From positions 682,001 through 746,000 of the forward strand of contig NZ_MDGQ01000005.1 in the NCBI RefSeq assembly GCF_001747105.1: a stretch of DNA of 64,000 nt, in the 5' to 3' direction. Shown piece by piece: positions 25,394-30,884 of this stretch. Below the pieces are notes generated by a model. It saw nothing but the letters and a program-made list of their open reading frames with translations, searched no databases and was not told where the DNA came from. Origin of the DNA: Roseivirga misakiensis. GTDB lineage: Bacteria; Bacteroidota; Bacteroidia; Cytophagales; Cyclobacteriaceae. Both the position numbers and the translations under genes were made by a program. The stretch's first letter is position 1. Each line of letters opens with the position of its first letter.

Positions 25394-25422
25394 AAAAGAG
25401 ACACCAATTTGATGTCTCTTTT
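25394..25422. terminator. Bidirectional intrinsic terminator
   Basis: The arms GAGACA and TGTCTC are extended by A-runs and T-runs on the two sides and enclose a 9-base loop. The hairpin lies between the converging TsdA and RtcB genes and can stop transcripts from both strands. Confidence 0.8.
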
Positions 25423-25425
25423 CAT

Positions 25426-26859
25426 TTAATCAACCTCCTGATATTTACCTTTTGCCTCATTGGCGCCACACATCCTCACTACTTTAGGTTGGAAAGTGCC
25501 AACTACATCCACCAGGTCTTTTTGACGATCCATTACCTCATAAATGTCTTTATAAACCTGTGGGGCTTCGTCTAGTCCAGAGCCAATTAATGTGATACCA
25601 GCCTTTTTAATGTGCTGTTTTACCTCCTTTTTAGAAAGGCTCTGTTTGGCTTTAGTTCTAGACATTAATCTACCCGCACCATGGGCTGCAGAATTTATGG
25701 ATTCATTGACGCCTTTCCCTTTGACAATAAATCCGGGGGAAGTCATAGAGCCAGGAATAATACCCATTACCCCGTCACCCGCAGGAGTGGCTCCTTTTCT
25801 ATGAACAATGATCTCATTTCCATCAGCGTCTTGCTCTTTCCAGGCAAAATTATGATGGTTTTCTACCATGGCTAAAGGTCTTTCTCCAAGTGCTTTAGCA
25901 AGCCTTTCGTGAATTTGGTGATGACATGCCGAAGCATAGTCACCAGCCAAATTCATGGCTAACCAATATTCTTGACCTGCTTCTGAATCAAGATCCAACC
26001 AGGCCAAGTGCTTGGCTTCGCTCGGTAACTTGGTCATATCCATGGCCAACTTGGTGTAATGTCTCGCGATATTTGCACCAAGCCCTCTCGATCCCGAGTG
26101 GGAGAGTACCGACAGATATTTGCCCGGGGATAGTCCCATTTCGTTGTCTTCGGTCAGGATTTCTCCAATACCAAATTCGACAAAATGATTTCCACCACCC
26201 GAAGACCCAATCTGTTTCCACGCCTTGTCCTTCAGAGACTTTACAATATTGATTTCGCCAAAAAGACTGTTATCCAACACGGCATGATCTTTTGGACGCT
26301 TAAAAGCGCTTTGACCAAATCGTGTATTGTCTAGTAACATTTTCTCTAATTCCTCCGTGTTTTGATGCACATAAGCAGGAGGAATATCGTATAAAGTCAT
26401 ACACATTCTACAACCTATATCAACACCAACTCCATAAGGGATTACCGCATTTTCAGTGGCCAAAACACCACCAATTGGTAAGCCATAGCCTTGATGTGCG
26501 TCTGGCATGAGAGCACCCGATTTGGTGACTGGTAGCCTCATCGCGATCTCCATTTGGTTAATTGCGCCGGGTTCGATGCCTTCAACACCATAAATGGAGT
26601 AAGGGATTCGTTTTTGACGCATTTCCAATGGTTTGTTCGATATCTTACTAATCATCAATGCGGTAGCAATAGGCCCGAGTGTCTCATGTTTTGCATAAAG
26701 TGCTGGGTTTTCTAATACCTTTTTTAGCATTGATTTCTTATGAAGAATCGATTTGCCTTTATAGGCCGATTCCATTACGCGCATGGCTTCGCCAATAGCT
26801 CTTCCTTCAGGAAAACCTAACTTTTTAAGGTCTTTACCTATTAGTTTTTTAGATGCCAT
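25426..26859 (-). CDS. rtcB: RtcB RNA ligase
   Basis: Joins RNA 2',3'-cyclic phosphate or 3'-phosphate ends to 5'-OH ends using GTP and Mn2+, acting on broken or spliced tRNA and other RNAs. The 477-residue protein has all key residues: Asp147 and Cys150 in GVDIGCRMC, Asn224-His225 in GGGNHFVEFG, His254 in LSHSGSRG, the ENHHN motif (His335/336), and the guanylylated His393 in AAHGAGRLMSR. It is the last gene of a four-gene operon with a TPR protein, an unrecognised basic protein and a slipin, downstream of a tRNA-like array. RtcA cyclase is not present here. Confidence 0.96.
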   Translation of the reverse strand: MASKKLIGKDLKKLGFPEGRAIGEAMRVMESAYKGKSILHKKSMLKKVLENPALYAKHETLGPIATALMISKISNKPLEMRQKRIPYSIYGVEGIEPGAINQMEIAMRLPVTKSGALMPDAHQGYGLPIGGVLATENAVIPYGVGVDIGCRMCMTLYDIPPAYVHQNTEELEKMLLDNTRFGQSAFKRPKDHAVLDNSLFGEINIVKSLKDKAWKQIGSSGGGNHFVEFGIGEILTEDNEMGLSPGKYLSVLSHSGSRGLGANIARHYTKLAMDMTKLPSEAKHLAWLDLDSEAGQEYWLAMNLAGDYASACHHQIHERLAKALGERPLAMVENHHNFAWKEQDADGNEIIVHRKGATPAGDGVMGIIPGSMTSPGFIVKGKGVNESINSAAHGAGRLMSRTKAKQSLSKKEVKQHIKKAGITLIGSGLDEAPQVYKDIYEVMDRQKDLVDVVGTFQPKVVRMCGANEAKGKYQEVD

Positions 26860-26862
26860 AAC

Positions 26863-27417
26863 TCAGTTATTTGTGTTTGTGCTTGCTTGAGCCTCAGCAT
26901 TATGCTTAGCCTTACCAAGCAAGCGTTTCAAACGTTTATACTTATTTCTCTTAATATGCCCTTTCAATTCGTCGGTCACATAGTTGTTTAGTGATGCCAA
27001 ACGTGCCTTCTTATAGAAAGTGATAGCCATATTGTAATTGGTTTCCGCTTCAGCTACTTGGCCGAGGTTTCCATAGATAAATACTCTGTTAATATTCTCG
27101 TATGGAATAGCTTTGTTTAACCAAATTCTTATCCCTTGATACTTGTTCTCCTCATAATAGAGCTGAACTAAGTTTTCATAGAACTCTTGTTCTTTTGGGT
27201 TGAACTTGATCGCTAGTTGATACTGAAATTCGGCTTTCTCACAGTTTTTGATGTGATAATGGTAGAGTTCACCAAGCTTAATATGTAGTCTGGGATAACC
27301 AGGTTCTTCATGTAAGCCACACTCTAGCCACTTTCTAGCCTCATCGTATTTATCATCATATAAAGCATCTTCTGCCATCTGAATCAGACCCTCGATATAT
27401 TCTTCGTAGATGTCCAT
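26863..27417 (-). CDS. TPR protein of the rtcB operon
   Basis: This 184-residue protein has no signal peptide and is probably cytoplasmic. It is built of tetratricopeptide-like helical pairs: AEDALYDDKYDEARKWLECG, LHIKLGELYHYHIKNCEKAE, YENLVQLYYEENKYQGIRIW and FIYGNLGQVAEAETNYNMAI. A basic C-terminus follows (HIKRNKYKRLKRLLGKAKH), which could contact RNA. It sits 3 bases upstream of RtcB, so the two are translated together. It may be an adaptor for RtcB; that is inference. Confidence 0.82.
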   Translation of the reverse strand: MDIYEEYIEGLIQMAEDALYDDKYDEARKWLECGLHEEPGYPRLHIKLGELYHYHIKNCEKAEFQYQLAIKFNPKEQEFYENLVQLYYEENKYQGIRIWLNKAIPYENINRVFIYGNLGQVAEAETNYNMAITFYKKARLASLNNYVTDELKGHIKRNKYKRLKRLLGKAKHNAEAQASTNTNN

Positions 27418-27431
27418 TTTTCTAATATTCA

Positions 27432-27448
27432 GAGGGCAGCGTGCCCTC
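27432..27448. other. Intercistronic hairpin overlapping a stop codon
   Basis: GAGGGCA-GCG-TGCCCTC forms a 7-base-pair stem between the basic-protein gene and the TPR gene and overlaps the stop codon of the former. There is no T-run, so it is not an intrinsic terminator. It could protect or mark a processing point in the operon mRNA. Confidence 0.6.
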
Positions 27449-27956
27449 AGATTATAATTCGTTTATTTTTCACTTTTAGTAATTGCCCACTTTTAGGGTG
27501 TACATAAAAAACGGGATGCCAAAAGGAGGTTAATTCATTTTGTCCACCCCATTTTCCAACTGACAAAATTTTGCCGTTTTCGATAGATACTTTTGTGTGG
27601 ACGAAGTCAGAAATGTGGTCAAAAACATGTTGGCCTAGAACACTGTTTTTATCCATTCTTTGGCATAATTGCTGATAGACTTTGTTCCAAAACTTGCCTT
27701 CATTTTTAGCAAGGAATCTAAGGAGCGGTTGTAAGTTGTCTGTTTGGCACTTTGTGCCACCACTTCTTAGTTTTATGCCTTCTTTCTTTCGGTAGTTGTC
27801 GGGATTGTTTGCATGGCTTTTATCATAACCTTTGCGTTTGTTTCCCTGCCATCTACCACCCACACGGTAGCATTCGATTAATTCCTCATGCATACGCTTG
27901 TCTCTACGCTTTTGGCGCTTCCTTAAGGATGGTTTAAGTGTATCTGCATTTTTCAT
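27447..27956 (-). CDS. Unrecognised basic protein of the rtcB operon
   Basis: This 169-residue protein has no signal peptide or membrane helix. The N-terminal 60 residues are strongly basic (LRKRQKRRDKRMHEEL, GNKRKGYDKSH, NYRKKEGIKLRSGGTK), which suits RNA or ribosome binding. The C-terminal part is compact: LQPLLRFLAKNEGKFWNKVY, then LGQHVFDHISDFVHTKVSI, and a short beta-rich end (HPVFYVHPKSGQLLKVKNKR). Similar proteins occur in other bacteria but no function is known to me. Its place between slipin and RtcB suggests an RNA-related role; this is inference. Confidence 0.72.
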   Translation of the reverse strand: MKNADTLKPSLRKRQKRRDKRMHEELIECYRVGGRWQGNKRKGYDKSHANNPDNYRKKEGIKLRSGGTKCQTDNLQPLLRFLAKNEGKFWNKVYQQLCQRMDKNSVLGQHVFDHISDFVHTKVSIENGKILSVGKWGGQNELTSFWHPVFYVHPKSGQLLKVKNKRIII

Positions 27957-27971
27957 TTTTCTTTTGATTAT

Positions 27972-27995
27972 GCTTCCGGGACTTTGCCCGGAAGC
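27972..27995. other. Intercistronic GC-rich hairpin
   Basis: GCTTCCGGG-ACTTTG-CCCGGAAGC, a perfect 9-base-pair stem with a 6-base loop, fills the gap between the slipin gene and the basic-protein gene. No T-run follows on either strand, so an mRNA processing or stability element is more likely than a terminator. Confidence 0.65.
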
Positions 27996-27997
27996 CG

Positions 27998-29098
27998 TTA
28001 TTTAAAGCCAGTGAATACTTCTTTCAACTGGTCTACAACCTTGTGTCCACCTGAGAGAGAAATGTTGCTCACCTTATCAGCGATTTTTTCAACATATTCC
28101 ATCTCCTTCAATTTGAACAACATCTCGTTGTCTTCCATCAATTTTGCGGTGTTGAGCAAGTTTCTAGTAGAGGCAGTTTCTTCCCTTCTGGCTACTACAT
28201 TAGCTTGTGCTTGTTTCTGTGCTACCAAAACCTGGTTCATGATGTTTTTTACTTCACCGGGCAAAATGATGTCCTTGACACCACAGTCCCTGATCTCAAT
28301 TCCCAAATCTTTGGCTTTCACCTGGAGCACTTTTTTGACGTAGTCGGCAAGTGAGTCTTTCTCTTCTAGCAACTCATCCAAGGTGAACTTTCCAACAAAT
28401 TCTCTCAATGCGATCTGCATCAACACATAGAGTTGCTTCTCAAAATCTTTATTGTCTATTAAGGCTTTGACAATGTCCATTACCTTGTATTGACCGTAAA
28501 AATTAATTCTTAAAGCAGCTTTGTCTTTAGTCAAGATTTCTTGACCTGTAACTTCCATTTGCACTTGTCTCATGTCGGCTTTCAACATATTCAAGGCTAT
28601 TTCATTTTTCCAGAAGTAGTAATCTCCAGGATCTAATTCTTTGTAGAATGATCCATTTACCATTAAAATGGCTTTTTCATAGCTTTCTACTTTGCATACT
28701 CTGATGTATGGAATAAGCGCTCTGTCTTTTTTTACACTCAAATCAATGTCTTCGGTGATCTCAATTTTGGTAAGATCTACCTTAACAAAGGAGTAGTCAA
28801 TGAGGCCTTTCCAAAACGCGTACGTCCCAGGAGTGAGTACTTCTTTGAAGTTTCCTCTCTTGTACTTGAGGGCAATTTTATGATCACCAACCCGTACTAT
28901 ATTTAGCATAGCGACAAGCTTTTCGTCATTCAAAAACAAGTCAATTGTCTTTGGAGCGTAGAATGGCTTGACCATGTCATATTCAACTACAGCGTCTAAA
29001 AGAGATACCCAATGCGTACCTGCGGTAAGCACATTTCGGTAGTCTCCTTTTCTGAAAACAAGCCCTACTTTGCCTTGGTTAATTCGTATCCTTTTCAT
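27998..29098 (-). CDS. Slipin (SPFH/Band-7 family) protein
   Basis: This 366-residue protein has the SPFH domain at about 95-300 (VNGSFYKELDPGDYYFWK, ALRINFYGQYKV, LRDCGVKDIILPG-like block at about 285-300) and a helical coiled-coil tail that drives oligomerisation (AQKQAQANVVARREETASTR). An N-terminal part repeats short beta motifs of the type FRKGDYRNVLTAGTHW and YKRGNFKEVLTPGTYAFW. There is no obvious N-terminal membrane helix, unusual for slipins, so it may be cytoplasmic or peripheral. Band-7 proteins are known companions of RtcB in RNA-repair operons. It is the first protein gene after the tRNA-like array. Confidence 0.88.
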   Translation of the reverse strand: MKRIRINQGKVGLVFRKGDYRNVLTAGTHWVSLLDAVVEYDMVKPFYAPKTIDLFLNDEKLVAMLNIVRVGDHKIALKYKRGNFKEVLTPGTYAFWKGLIDYSFVKVDLTKIEITEDIDLSVKKDRALIPYIRVCKVESYEKAILMVNGSFYKELDPGDYYFWKNEIALNMLKADMRQVQMEVTGQEILTKDKAALRINFYGQYKVMDIVKALIDNKDFEKQLYVLMQIALREFVGKFTLDELLEEKDSLADYVKKVLQVKAKDLGIEIRDCGVKDIILPGEVKNIMNQVLVAQKQAQANVVARREETASTRNLLNTAKLMEDNEMLFKLKEMEYVEKIADKVSNISLSGGHKVVDQLKEVFTGFK

Positions 29099-29112
29099 CT
29101 TTTAAAAATTTG

Positions 29113-29127
29113 TGAGGCAGTGCCTCG
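29113..29127. other. Hairpin between tRNA-like array and slipin gene
   Basis: A GAGGCA-type palindrome (GAGGCAGTGCCTC core) lies 15 bases upstream of the slipin start codon. It is the third GC-rich palindrome placed at a junction of this operon and has no T-run. Confidence 0.45.
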
Positions 29128-29226
29128 GTTAATTATTCATTATCACTATTGGCCAAATAATTTCATTCAATAGGAGCGGTGTAAACCGACCATCTTTCAT
29201 AGACGGAGCTTTCATTGAGTCTGAAT

Positions 29227-29409
29227 TCATGGTTGAGTTCTAGCACAAGCGTGATCAGTATGAATTGGCTGATATCCAATTCTCTTTTCAGTTTTATACT
29301 TGAAGTCAATCATTGCATCAGTCGGTATCCTGATTGCCCTGGTTTCTTCAAAATGTTCCTCATTCCCGAGAGTTTGAGGGGTCGATTTAACACCACATCC
29401 TGGTGTCAC
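29227..29409 (-). CDS. Possible small protein between the array and slipin
   Basis: The frame starting at GTG (29409) encodes 60 residues with protein-like composition (GNEEHFEETRAIRIPTDAMI and DFKYKTEKRIGYQPIH). The same frame stays open upstream to 29460 (DEEWTVNPSEVLASIKP), 77 codons in all, but with no ATG. Nothing is recognised. The open frame overlaps an anticodon-arm-like hairpin at 29436-29452, so it may be a coding relic, a gene with an unusual start, or chance. Confidence 0.35.
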   Translation of the reverse strand: MTPGCGVKSTPQTLGNEEHFEETRAIRIPTDAMIDFKYKTEKRIGYQPIHTDHACARTQP

Positions 29410-29460
29410 TGGTTTTATAGAAGCCAGTACTTCTGATGGATTAACAGTCCATTCCTCATC

Positions 29461-29541
29461 TTAAGAGGTGCTTTACTCTAACCGGGCTGAGTTACCCCGA
29501 CCTTGTCGAGGGGAGGATTCGAACCTCCGTCTTAAGCGTAA
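29461..29541 (-). ncRNA. Circularly permuted tRNA-like element
   Basis: Reading the minus strand, a perfect T arm (GGAGG-TTCGAAT-CCTCC, 29512-29528) is followed directly by CCTCGAC (29505-29511), then AAG, then GTCGGGG (29495-29501), TA and a canonical D arm (ACTC-AGCCCGGTTA-GAGT, 29475-29492). CCTCGAC and GTCGGGG pair over all 7 positions (one G-U), as the 3' and 5' strands of one acceptor stem. The 3' half therefore lies before the 5' half. Both outer ends contain CTTAAGA, perhaps a Lys-type CUU anticodon loop. Two tandem tRNAs that lost their outer halves would give the same picture. Confidence 0.55.
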
Positions 29542-29593
29542 TTTATGGTGGGAGATTAGTCCACTCACAAGAAGCATATCCATGCCTATTGGC

Positions 29594-29652
29594 AAGAATA
29601 CTATGGGGCTTTTGAAGCCCTCATCAGGCCTTATACCTGAACTTAAATTCCC
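29594..29652 (-). ncRNA. Truncated tRNA-like element lacking a D arm
   Basis: A 59-base segment is closed by GGGAAT/ATTCTT (six pairs, two of them G-U). It contains an anticodon-arm-like hairpin (TCAGG-7 bases-CCTGA) immediately followed by a T-arm-like hairpin with a TTCAAAA loop between GGGC and GCCC. No D arm fits. It lies between the GUA tRNA-like gene and the permuted element, in the same orientation. Confidence 0.35.
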
Positions 29653-29653
29653 G

Positions 29654-29736
29654 TGGAAATGGTAGGATTCGAACCTACTGAGCCTTTGGCATCGGTTTTA
29701 CAGACCGATATAACTCTCCATCGTTATCGCATTTCC
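29654..29736 (-). tRNA. tRNA-like gene, Tyr-type anticodon GUA
   Basis: A 83-base class II cloverleaf. Acceptor GGAAATG/CATTTCC is perfect. The D arm is unusual (ATAAC...GTTAT). The anticodon arm is TCGGT-CTGTAAA-ACCGA, a long variable arm has a GCC/GGC stem, the T arm is GTAGG-TTCGAAT-CCTAC and the discriminator is A. The long variable arm and discriminator fit bacterial tRNA-Tyr. No CCA is encoded. It is much more A/T-rich in the acceptor than an ordinary housekeeping tRNA-Tyr, so it may be an accessory or decoy copy. Confidence 0.72.
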
Positions 29737-29741
29737 ATATG

Positions 29742-29813
29742 CGGAAATAGCTGGATTCGAACCAACAACCTTCTCCTTAACAGGGAGTAGCTCTACCGTT
29801 GAGCTATATTTCC
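29742..29813 (-). tRNA. tRNA-like gene, Asn-type anticodon GUU
   Basis: A 72-base cloverleaf. Acceptor GGAAATA/TATTTCC is perfect, D arm TAGCTCAACGGTAGAGCTA, anticodon arm ACTCC-CTGTTAA-GGAGA (four pairs plus one A-A), T arm GTTGG-TTCGAAT-CCAGC, and discriminator G as in tRNA-Asn. The two bases after the discriminator are CA, not a full CCA. Its acceptor differs from that of the neighbouring GUA element by one pair, and only 5 bases separate them. Confidence 0.75.
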
Positions 29814-29942
29814 ATTTAGGCTATCCTTCCATTGGGCTTGAGATCCACAAGCTTTGTGTCGGAATAACCTGCTATTCACTTTAAAGCTTTTACAAACATC
29901 ACAACCCGAACATCCCGAAACTTCGGGAGGTTGTTTAGGGCC
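29814..29942 (-). ncRNA. Hairpin-rich segment of the tRNA-like array
   Basis: No canonical cloverleaf fits, but nested stems fill the segment: ACAACC/GGTTGT enclosing TCCCGAA-GT-TTCGGGA, GCTTT/AAAGC enclosing GAATA-6 bases-TATTC, and CTTG-TGGATCT-CAAG. They resemble degenerate tRNA arms mixed with short palindromes. The region is inferred to be part of the same transcript as its neighbours. Confidence 0.3.
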
Positions 29943-30013
29943 TTTAACCCCTCTCTAAATCAGGAGACACCCGTTCTGCCTCTCCTTTAGCTTCTTAGTT
30001 TTATCTGGTTAAA
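29943..30013 (-). ncRNA. tRNA-sized element closed by a perfect 7-pair stem
   Basis: TTTAACC (30007-30013) and GGTTAAA (29943-29949) pair perfectly and enclose exactly tRNA length, 71 bases. Inside, CTAAA-GGAGA ... TCTCC-TGA-TTTAG makes a long hairpin with a 13-base loop. There is no T arm. It looks like an acceptor-closed tRNA derivative reduced to one internal arm. Confidence 0.35.
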
Positions 30014-30069
30014 CGACTTAACGTTTTATCCGCTCCGCTCTTCGAGCACTTCCCTAACGGGCGGAGATG

Positions 30070-30180
30070 TATGTTTAAATCATTCTACCAGGATTTGAAT
30101 CCTGCTTGCAGGCAAGTCGAATCCTTAACCAAATGCTGGCGTCTTCGCTTCCGAGACTTTGGGGCGGCCACCCGGCATCT
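30070..30180 (-). ncRNA. Degenerate tRNA-like elements
   Basis: Two overlapping possibilities are seen. A 46-base mini-element at 30133-30178 is closed by ATGCCGG/CCAGCAT (six of seven pairs) with an internal GTCT...AGAC stem. Next to it, a T-arm-like palindrome CAGGAT-TCAA-ATCCTG is preceded by a CTTGC/GCAAG palindrome. A weak acceptor AGCATTT/GAATGAT would join the second. Neither has a complete cloverleaf. Confidence 0.3.
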
Positions 30181-30183
30181 TTG

Positions 30184-30276
30184 AGTCAGGGGAGGGGATC
30201 AAACCTGCCTTTGTCGGCAGACAGGCCCTCCTAACTGGTTTTGCAGACCAGTGCCTAGTCACTCGGCCACCCTGAC
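30184..30276 (-). tRNA. tRNA-like gene, Cys-type anticodon GCA, with hairpin insertion
   Basis: The acceptor GTCAGGG/CCCTGAC is perfect, the D arm reads TGGCCGAGTGACTAGGCA, and the anticodon arm is CTGGT-CTGCAAA-ACCAG (anticodon GCA). The T stem GAGGG/CCCTC is perfect only if 22 bases are removed. These 22 bases form a CTGCC/GGCAG hairpin inserted just before the T loop (TTTGATC, with T in place of the conserved C56). The element is thus 93 bases long. An unusual long variable arm is the other reading. Discriminator is T, and no CCA is encoded. Confidence 0.62.
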
Positions 30277-30281
30277 TTGTG

Positions 30282-30354
30282 TATCCAGTAGAGGATTCGA
30301 ACCTCTATTTCTACCTTATGAGAATAGTGTCCTCACCTCTTAGACGAACTCGAT
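30282..30354 (-). tRNA. tRNA-like gene, anticodon CAU on a Glu-like body
   Basis: A 73-base cloverleaf: acceptor ATCGAGT/ACTGGAT (six of seven pairs, one G-G), a D region TTCGTCTAAGAGGTGAGGAC that resembles tRNA-Glu, anticodon arm CTATT-CTCATAA-GGTAG (anticodon CAU, Met/Ile2 type), and T arm AGAGG-TTCGAAT-CCTCT. There is no encoded CCA. It is the first element of the array, ending 5 bases before the GCA element and starting 7 bases after the U-tract of a terminator-like hairpin. Confidence 0.65.
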
Positions 30355-30359
30355 TGATC

Positions 30360-30390
30360 AAAAAAAAGCCCGACCTTCAGAAGGCCGGGC
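30360..30390 (-). terminator. Intrinsic terminator just upstream of the tRNA-like array
   Basis: On the minus strand GCCCGGCCTT-CTG-AAGGTCGGGC forms 10 pairs (one G-U) followed by a run of eight T. It ends 6 bases before the first tRNA-like gene, so transcription from further upstream must read through it. It could act as an attenuator or as the end of a short leader RNA. Confidence 0.75.
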
Positions 30391-30416
30391 TTTTCAAAAC
30401 CGAATTATCAGTTTTG

Positions 30417-30536
30417 TCAAGTCATCATTTCATCGACCTTTTGAATAATATGTAGTCCCCCAAATTCAAAATCATATTGACTCTGATAGCATTGGTTTAA
30501 ATTCTCTGATTGTATTTGCTTCATATGTTGTAGCAT
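30417..30536 (-). CDS. Possible 39-residue leader peptide
   Basis: An ATG-started frame (MLQHMKQIQSENLNQCYQSQ ... IIQKVDEMMT) lies between two intrinsic terminators upstream of the array. The composition is plausible but nothing is recognised, and no promoter was identified between it and the upstream terminator. It could be a leader peptide linked to attenuation, or chance. Confidence 0.25.
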   Translation of the reverse strand: MLQHMKQIQSENLNQCYQSQYDFEFGGLHIIQKVDEMMT

Positions 30537-30554
30537 TTTGTCAAATTTTAAGCA

Positions 30555-30584
30555 CAAAAAAACCCGAACCAAATGGATCGGGTT
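30555..30584 (-). terminator. Second intrinsic terminator upstream of the array
   Basis: On the minus strand ACCCGA and TCGGGT, with inner CC/GG pairs, form a stem of about nine pairs interrupted by a T-T mismatch, followed by seven T. It lies about 130 bases downstream of the promoter-like sequence at 30715-30747. Confidence 0.7.
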
Positions 30585-30714
30585 GTCAATTTCTTTCATT
30601 GAAAATTAACTTTCCCCGAACCGGGATACAAATGAATTTTGACACTCCAGTTGGCTGGCTGGAGCTGTAAATTCGGTATGTATATAACTTTTTGTCATTT
30701 CGTTTTCTGTGTCA

Positions 30715-30747
30715 CAAATGTATTGAAATCGTTTTCTAAAATCCAAA
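30715..30747 (-). promoter_or_regulatory. Candidate Bacteroidota promoter for the array leader
   Basis: On the minus strand TACATTTG (30715-30722) matches the -7 consensus TAnnTTTG, and TTTG (30744-30747) lies 21 bases upstream, matching the -33 element. The start would be near 30708, giving a leader that crosses two terminators before the tRNA-like array. Confidence 0.5.
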
Positions 30748-30884
30748 AACTATTTTTAATGAATTAAATTTATCAGGCTTAAAATAGAAATTAAGTTATT
30801 GATAGTCAATGATATATAATTGAATAAAAAAATCTAAAAAAACTTTTATTCCCTCAGAAAACAGTTGAAAGGATATAAAAATCT

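What the first reader, a model, noticed from the sequence alone, without database searches (positions are those of the whole stretch)
25426..30750. RtcB RNA-repair operon with an upstream array of tRNA-like genes
Four foldable tRNA-like genes (anticodons CAU, GCA, GUU, GUA), a permuted one and several acceptor-closed mini-elements lie in tandem. They are on the same strand and directly upstream of slipin, a basic protein, a TPR protein and RtcB. RtcB rejoins cleaved RNA, notably tRNA. The anticodons include types cut by known anticodon nucleases (Tyr/Asn-type by colicin E5; CAU initiator by VapC). The array could be decoys, repair substrates or damage sensors for an RNA-conflict system. The layout is seen; the function is inference.
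Basis: partly seen in the sequence, partly recalled or inferred. Interest (0 to 1): 0.92.

Follow-up and report, generated by a model that had tools for sequence, protein, structure and literature searches.

The report
Attenuator-controlled spare-tRNA and RNA-repair operon
A marine bacterium carries an operon that appears to notice when its transfer RNAs have been destroyed and then to release spare, rewritten tRNAs together with an RNA-mending enzyme; the layout is seen in the sequence, the working is inferred.

Summary
The array is real. Four tRNA genes and one circularly permuted tRNA lie upstream of slipin, a basic ORF, a TPR protein and RtcB in a Roseivirga-like genome. Many relatives keep the layout, but the set of anticodons turns over.

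Upstream of the array lie two tandem modules, each a short ORF followed by an intrinsic terminator. In each, the ORF 3' end can pair with the terminator 5' strand: the anatomy of leader-peptide attenuation. The leaders carry an unusually wide range of amino acids. Loci with such modules carry more array tRNAs than those without (mean 4.6 against 0.43). Module-less loci often have a divergent WYL regulator instead.

In the three genomes compared, array tRNAs mostly keep the host's discriminator base for their isotype (25 of 28), but all anticodon stems are rewritten (0 of 29 identical). That suits spare tRNAs better than decoys. Downstream is a structured RNA: permuted tRNA domain(s), a pseudoknot and a core.

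Best reading: loss of tRNAs stalls leader translation; antitermination releases spare tRNAs, the permuted RNA, slipin and RtcB. Nothing was tested for expression. SPFH (slipin)-RtcB with a tRNA-like RNA was, as I recall, described in 2016; the attenuators and spare-tRNA logic I did not find in print.

The parts
30715..30722 (-). TACATTTG, a Bacteroidota-type -7 promoter element (TAnnTTTG; motif recalled), 16 nt upstream of the start of leader ORF 1
   Evidence: TAnnTTTG lies within 90 nt upstream of the first leader in 16 of 48 loci against 3.1% of random windows
30606..30698 (-). leader ORF 1, 30 aa, MTKSYIHTEFTAPASQLECQNSFVSRFGES, 18 different residues
30563..30582 (-). terminator 1 hairpin followed by 7 T; its 5' strand can pair, imperfectly, with the 3' end of leader ORF 1 (longest unbroken helix 5 bp)
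   Evidence: folds
30417..30536 (-). leader ORF 2, 39 aa, MLQHMKQIQSENLNQCYQSQYDFEFGGLHIIQKVDEMMT, 16 different residues
30431..30440 (-). antiterminator strand AAGGTCGATG inside leader ORF 2; the first seven bases repeat the terminator 3' strand and pair with CGGCCTT of the terminator 5' strand
30368..30390 (-). terminator 2 hairpin followed by 8 T, directly before the first array tRNA
30281..30354 (-). array tRNA with anticodon CAU; its body is closest to host tRNA-Glu (78%)
30183..30276 (-). array tRNA-Cys (GCA) with a 22-nt hairpin insert at 30204-30225
29963..29985 (-). stem-loop GGAGAGGCAGAACGGGTGTCTCC between array tRNAs; the same sequence, with a base or two changed, stands in L069-L071
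   Evidence: read by eye
29741..29813 (-). array tRNA-Asn (GUU)
29653..29736 (-). array tRNA-Tyr (GUA), 84 nt, with long variable arm
29460..29537 (-). P1: circularly permuted tRNA (anticodon-stem 3' strand, T-arm, closed acceptor, D-arm, anticodon-stem 5' strand)
   Evidence: outer limits set by eye
29436..29452 (-). anticodon-arm-like hairpin ATGGACTGTTAATCCAT (GUU), read as the remnant of a second permuted tRNA (P2) that is more complete in relatives
29408..29433 (-). H-type pseudoknot GAAG-ACUGG-CUUC..AAAA-CCAGU
29202..29330 (-). conserved core of the leader RNA, with GGATACCG at 29323-29330
27998..29098 (-). slipin (SPFH/Band 7), 366 aa
27447..27956 (-). basic ORF, 169 aa, no Pfam family; similar ORF found in 3 of the 18 fetched relative loci
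26863..27417 (-). TPR protein, 184 aa
25426..26859 (-). RtcB RNA ligase, 477 aa; Cys and His positions of the active site line up with solved RtcB (residue roles recalled)
25394..25422 (-). terminator-like hairpin after rtcB
   Evidence: read by eye

Best explanation
This is an inducible tRNA-rescue operon. Shown by sequence: two tandem short ORFs, each ending shortly before an intrinsic terminator, with a possible alternative pairing between the ORF 3' end and the terminator 5' strand; then divergent supernumerary tRNAs; then a structured RNA with a permuted tRNA and a pseudoknot; then slipin and RtcB. Inferred: while all tRNAs are present, ribosomes reach the leader stop codon, cover the antiterminator strand, and transcription stops before the array. 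When anticodon nucleases (toxins, phage-triggered defences, rival bacteria) deplete one or more tRNAs, the ribosome stalls within the leader, which samples most amino acids. The antiterminator then forms, at both modules, and the operon is read. Its products are spare tRNAs whose anticodon stems (and, in the two Flavobacteriia compared, most loops) are rewritten, which could spare them from the nuclease while staying chargeable; RtcB, which rejoins cleaved tRNAs; and a slipin scaffold that may use the permuted RNA much as Ro60 uses a Y RNA.
For: Modules: of 93 terminators found within 5.2 kb upstream of slipin in 92 loci, 78 have an ORF of 24-48 aa whose stop lies 12-55 nt upstream, against 18 of 72 (opposite strand) and 12 of 56 (downstream). 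A helix of 7 bp or more between ORF 3' end and terminator 5' strand: 61 of 78, against 6 of 18 and 6 of 12. In 50 non-redundant modules its mean is 6.86 against 5.56 (sd 0.15, max 5.90 of 100) with partners shuffled. In the window both antiterminators form when the terminator 3' strand is left out of the fold. Range: 49 non-redundant leaders have 17.1 different residues against 15.0 in proteome fragments and 15.5 in nucleotide-shuffled ORFs; in 29 two-module loci the union averages 19.2 of 20, against 17.8 and 18.5. Link to arrays: 50 loci with a module carry on average 4.6 array tRNAs, 42 without 0.43 (p 2e-10); with more than 3 kb upstream held, 45 loci at 4.87 against 35 at 0.40. Of those 80, 42 have only a module, 25 only a divergent WYL gene, 3 both, 10 neither. 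Spare tRNAs: in three genomes with 29 array tRNAs, identity to the host tRNA of the same anticodon is 54-79%, the anticodon stem is identical in 0 of 29, and the discriminator equals the host's for that isotype in 25 of 28 read. Over all loci, against Roseivirga tRNAs: Cys U 16/16, His C 9/9, Ser G 16/16, Asp G 18/19, Phe A 18/18. Permuted tRNA: 123 of 161 orphan T-arms with a D-box have at least 6 of 7 acceptor pairs against 7.4% with partners shuffled.
Against: No expression, charging or cleavage data. Gln breaks the discriminator rule (U 13, G 2, A 6 of 21; Roseivirga, Zobellia and Aquimarina hosts have A), Arg is mixed (A 7, G 3, U 2, C 1 of 13), one of two Gly and the one Thr deviate from the Roseivirga base; most Leu lack the long variable arm. 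The leaders show no clear excess of third-position changes (63, 80, 89 at codon positions 1, 2, 3 in 17 pairs), so translation of the ORF is not shown by its evolution. A locus's leaders match its own array no better than another locus's leaders do (0.965 against 0.964, 44 loci). The surplus of residue types is modest and the leaders are related, so combined z-scores overstate independence. The Cys surplus seen against the proteome vanishes against shuffled ORFs (0.91), so I do not use the weak leader-array correlation. If a module must also have an antiterminator helix of 7 bp, the array contrast shrinks to 4.3 against 1.55 (40 and 40 loci); window module 1 itself has only an unbroken helix of 5 bp. 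A few called modules look spurious (for example a Lys-rich ORF in L137). In the window all four anticodon loops equal the host's, so resistance there would rest on stem or body alone. 23 of 80 loci with more than 4 kb downstream have no rtcB found at E 1e-5 with this query.
Confidence: 0.6

Rival explanations
1. Decoys: the tRNA mimics soak up anticodon nucleases; they are cut in place of host tRNAs and remade by RtcB.
For: In the window all four anticodon loops equal the host's; loci add anticodon-arm-like hairpins; the Cys element tolerates an insert in its T-arm; array Gln tRNAs mostly lack the host's discriminator.
Against: A decoy needs no isotype-correct discriminator base and no Ser/Tyr long variable arm, yet these are mostly kept; in Zobellia 9 of 13 and in Aquimarina 9 of 12 loops differ from the host's.
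Confidence: 0.2
2. Already-known SPFH/Band-7 RNA-repair system with a tRNA-like RNA (recalled: Burroughs and Aravind 2016), where the tRNA-like RNA is a scaffold of the slipin; the array tRNAs are accidental passengers.
For: A permuted element with at least 6 of 7 acceptor pairs stands in 81 of 92 loci, array tRNAs in 57 of 92, so the array is the less constant part; a distant slipin in E. coli has, by eye, a T-arm plus acceptor hairpin upstream.
Against: Passengers would not be expected to show a strong link to leader modules and mostly isotype-correct discriminators.
Confidence: 0.12
3. The short ORF/terminator units are ordinary terminators of upstream genes, and the array is constitutively expressed from another promoter.
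For: Terminators often end neighbouring genes; no promoter was mapped; the ORFs lack a clear coding signature.
Against: Two or more in 29 loci, with an ORF at a set distance far more often than at other terminators; conserved between L069-L071 where the DNA further upstream is not.
Confidence: 0.08

Closest known systems
Salmonella rsr-yrlBA-rtcBA RNA-repair operon (PMC7790460, passages and search listing seen)
   Same: RtcB next to a tRNA-like RNA; regulated by damaged tRNAs
   Different: Ro60 (Rsr), RtcA and activator RtcR there; here slipin, no TROVE and no RtcA found in the genome, leader modules, and a tRNA array. RtcR was not searched for here
Bacterial Y RNA YrlA (RF02553)
   Same: T-arm, acceptor closed by a loop, D-arm, opening at the anticodon stem; sub-threshold CM hit, 30.2 bits
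   Different: Below the 69-bit gathering score; no Ro60 partner found; followed by a second permuted tRNA or its remnant and a pseudoknot
SPFH/Band-7 RNA-repair modules with a novel tRNA-like RNA (Burroughs and Aravind 2016, recalled; not held)
   Same: slipin-like protein, RNA ligase, tRNA-like RNA
   Different: As far as I recall no attenuators and no array of spare tRNAs were described; I could not check
Pseudomonas aeruginosa PA5471.1 leader peptide and armZ (review PMC12057347, passages seen)
   Same: Leader-peptide control, proposed to be attenuation released by stalled ribosomes, of a gene for an RtcB-like protein
   Different: One leader, an efflux anti-repressor as output, no tRNA array
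Phage tRNAs predicted to evade anticodon nucleases (PMC10264068, abstract seen); Anabaena trn operon with rtcB in the same regulon (PMC10272220, passages seen)
   Same: Extra tRNAs tied to tRNA or translation stress
   Different: Phage-borne, or a megaplasmid array under the repressor TrcR with rtcB elsewhere on the chromosome

Membership tests
YrlA / bacterial Y RNA | permuted tRNA-like domain | tested here: met
YrlA / bacterial Y RNA | Rfam gathering score of 69 bits | tested here: not met
   30.2 bits in the window; 0 of 39 genomes over the cut-off
YrlA / bacterial Y RNA | Ro60/Rsr (TROVE) partner encoded | tested here: not met
   no PF05731 match in the genome
rtcBA RNA-repair operon | RtcB ligase with active-site residues | tested here: met
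   (residue roles recalled)
rtcBA RNA-repair operon | RtcA cyclase | tested here: not met
   no PF01137 match in the genome
rtcBA RNA-repair operon | RtcR activator | not tested
   no search for RtcR was made
Leader-peptide transcription attenuator | short ORF ending just before an intrinsic terminator | tested here: met
Leader-peptide transcription attenuator | antiterminator between ORF 3' end and terminator | tested here: met
   weaker for window module 1 (5 bp unbroken)
Leader-peptide transcription attenuator | run of codons for one amino acid (classical biosynthetic attenuators) | tested here: not met
   longest run at most 3 in 49 leaders; the range of residues is wide instead
Leader-peptide transcription attenuator | leader translated and read-through regulated | not testable with these tools
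   no clear third-position excess leaves translation open
Nuclease-evading spare tRNAs | supernumerary tRNAs of many isotypes, diverged from host copies | tested here: met
Nuclease-evading spare tRNAs | anticodon-loop changes | tested here: inconclusive
   0 of 4 changed in the window; 9 of 13 and 9 of 12 in two Flavobacteriia

The most novel reading that the evidence does not exclude
A bacterial 'tRNA-loss alarm': two leader peptides in series sample nearly every amino acid, so loss of almost any tRNA species stalls a ribosome and turns on a set of spare tRNAs rewritten away from the nuclease's target, together with a ligase and a permuted-tRNA scaffold RNA. The spare set turns over fast, as in an arms race with tRNA-cutting toxins and defences.
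Probability: 0.5. Interest if true: 0.92.

Novelty: new variant of a known kind. Interest (0 to 1): 0.82.

Why it matters
Bacteria, phages and toxins fight over tRNAs, and how a cell senses that a tRNA has been destroyed is known in few cases (from general knowledge). If right, this is a general sensor built from a leader ORF and a terminator, coupled to replacement as well as repair. It also offers a reason why tRNA arrays sit beside slipin and RNA-ligase genes in Bacteroidota, and it makes specific predictions that reporter fusions could test at once.

Tried and rejected
Leader composition against array composition: a weak correlation (rho 0.45-0.47, p 0.036-0.046) used the proteome as background; against shuffled ORFs the Cys surplus vanishes, so I dropped it. 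Own leader against swapped leader: no specificity. Coding signature in the leaders: none clear. The first array census allowed too short a gap and missed long arrays; it was redone and only the second is used. A viral origin of the slipin: no relative confirmed in viral contigs and none in the phage collection. GOLLD/ROOL-type giant RNAs (thought of from memory as also tRNA-associated): no Rfam match. A fold of an alignment of the whole leader RNA of 11 loci gave a poor consensus and is not used for structure. A split-box bias of array anticodons (202 split-box against 46 four-box, host 20 against 16, p 0.001) is noted but not built on, since the arrays share ancestry and the host counts come from one genome (one Ala and one Ile gene not seen were added by assumption).

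Of the 80, 7 that duplicate fetched loci were left out, giving 92 with the window and 18 fetched loci. 12 of the 92 hold 3 kb or less upstream of slipin; the module-array contrast was repeated without them. Orphan T-arms without a D-box within 75 nt (37 of 198) were left out of the acceptor count. The pseudoknot test used the 77 of 92 loci in which the hairpin was found. The codon-position test used equal-length leader pairs only.

Paper searches behind 'not found in print': all in the held open-licence library only.
Full report
Observation. The window lies in a genome placed in one genus with records titled Roseivirga (contigs share lengths; lineage). ARAGORN and Rfam each find the same four tRNAs and no others in 64 kb. 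ARAGORN finds 34 other distinct tRNA genes in the stretches taken from this genome, including Asn, Cys, Tyr and three CAU genes, so the four are supernumerary. They are 59-63% identical to host genes of the same anticodon; the CAU gene is nearest to tRNA-Glu (78%).

Conservation. In 19 genomes of the genus, 13 have this rtcB; 12 of these 13 have the slipin at high score, and the thirteenth rtcB starts 750 bases from a contig end. I examined 92 loci: the window, 18 fetched and 73 of 80 named loci (the 80 best of 552). At least one ARAGORN tRNA lies upstream of slipin in 57 of 92, 248 in all, up to 18 per locus. The sets differ even within the genus. Between L070 and L071 the last two core blocks are 149/150 and 134/135 identical, while the array and permuted blocks range from 20/150 to 135/150. 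This looks like turnover at a fixed place rather than decay.

Permuted tRNA and leader RNA. Orphan T-arms upstream of slipin are followed by a closed acceptor stem and a D-arm: at least 6 of 7 pairs in 123 of 161, against 7.4% with partners shuffled, with 140 distinct strand pairs among the 161. The helix at the place of the anticodon stem also exceeds its shuffles (5.03 against 4.15, sd 0.09; n 70). At least one such element stands in 81 of 92 loci, two or more in 39. A pseudoknot follows: loop-to-downstream helix 4.19 against 3.16 (sd 0.08), in the 77 of 92 loci where the hairpin was found. RGATAYCG lies within 520 nt of slipin in 40 of 92 loci, background 7%. The element resembles YrlA but fails its score in all 39 genomes searched, and no TROVE protein was found in the window's genome, so I do not file it there. 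At the loose limit of that search (E 10) 38 of 39 genomes and 13 of 14 controls ring, so only the strong hits mean anything.

Leader modules. The window has two: MTKSYIHTEFTAPASQLECQNSFVSRFGES followed by terminator 1, and MLQHMKQIQSENLNQCYQSQYDFEFGGLHIIQKVDEMMT followed by terminator 2. 50 of 92 loci have at least one module, 29 two or more. Counts and controls are given in the For line. The leaders diverge strongly yet keep a wide range of residues; 51 of 81 have His five to seven places after Met, against 3 of 30 control ORFs, 27 of 49 after removing similar ones. Folding with the terminator 3' strand left out gives a long-range helix between the leader 3' end and the terminator 5' strand around a central hairpin, for both window modules; with it included, the terminator wins. 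This is the arrangement expected of translation-coupled attenuation; ribosome stalling itself is inferred, and the ORFs show no clear coding signature.

Two kinds of control. Of 35 module-less loci with more than 3 kb upstream, 25 have a divergent gene for a WYL-type regulator (Pfam WYL/WCX shown for L095; others by tblastn). A TACGCAA..TGCGCA palindrome lies upstream in 20 of 92 loci: 14 with the WYL gene, 2 with a module, 5 with neither (one locus counts twice). Module-less loci have few or no array tRNAs. So the operon seems to be under either a protein regulator or an attenuator, and the spare tRNAs go with the attenuator. Under a stricter module definition the contrast is smaller, 4.3 against 1.55.

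Spare or decoy. In the three genomes compared, the discriminator equals the host's for the isotype in 25 of 28 (exceptions Gln twice, Arg once) and the anticodon stem in 0 of 29. Over all loci, against Roseivirga tRNAs, most isotypes keep their discriminator but Gln does not (6 of 21) and Arg is mixed. All 16 Ser keep the long arm, and so do 33 of 37 Tyr; the other four are 72-nt ATA-anticodon genes that are probably not Tyr tRNAs. Leu mostly lack it (24 of 26 at 73-78 nt, canonical 83-85). Loops equal those of their own host in 4 of 13 (Zobellia) and 3 of 12 (Aquimarina) but in 4 of 4 in the window. I read this as rewritten, chargeable spares, like the phage tRNAs of PMC10264068 (abstract seen), with the window as a case in which only stem and body differ. 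It remains an inference.

What is known. PMC7790460 (passages seen) describes an RtcB operon with a tRNA-like RNA, regulated by damaged tRNAs. PMC12057347 (passages seen) reviews a leader peptide proposed to control an RtcB-like protein by attenuation. PMC10272220 (passages seen) lists rtcB and a slipin among genes raised when the repressor of a tRNA operon is removed in Anabaena. I recall that Burroughs and Aravind (2016) reported SPFH modules with a novel tRNA-like RNA; the paper is not held. Ten searches of the held library turned up no description of the attenuators or of the array as spares beside slipin and rtcB.

Verdict. Observation confirmed; interpretation shifted from decoy or sensor array to an attenuator-controlled set of spare tRNAs with repair. 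The family is known in part; the control and the spare-tRNA logic look new.

Noticed in passing
G007:C48:290896-292736 and G009:C48:14315-16278: Second rtcB genes, on other contigs than the slipin, each with a sub-threshold YrlA-like hit directly upstream (31.6 and 34.6 bits).
   Followed up: no
L251:6001-8222 (E. coli): A distant slipin (35% identity) followed by a gene annotated as DNA polymerase beta superfamily, between yjbD and a zeta-toxin-family gene next to lysC; by eye a T-arm plus acceptor hairpin lies upstream, though the 5-bp T-arm pattern found none. A match in 1624 of 5426 E. coli genomes.
   Followed up: partly
L160 (Subdoligranulum record): Slipin (42%), a distant rtcB (25%), one T-arm with (by eye) a closing hairpin and a GGATACCG motif in a record labelled Bacillota, so the RNA may reach beyond Bacteroidota.
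   Followed up: partly
L154:8275-8838: An ORF shortly after slipin is a polynucleotide kinase-phosphatase-type HAD domain, another RNA-end-healing activity.
   Followed up: no
L095:4570-6168 (-): The divergent WYL/WCX regulator also matches a PhyH domain at its C-terminus in one ORF of 532 aa.
   Followed up: no
G040, G044, G048, G050 (places): YrlA-like hits of 35-39 bits that do not lie at the slipin-like hits; possibly other permuted tRNA-like RNAs.
   Followed up: no
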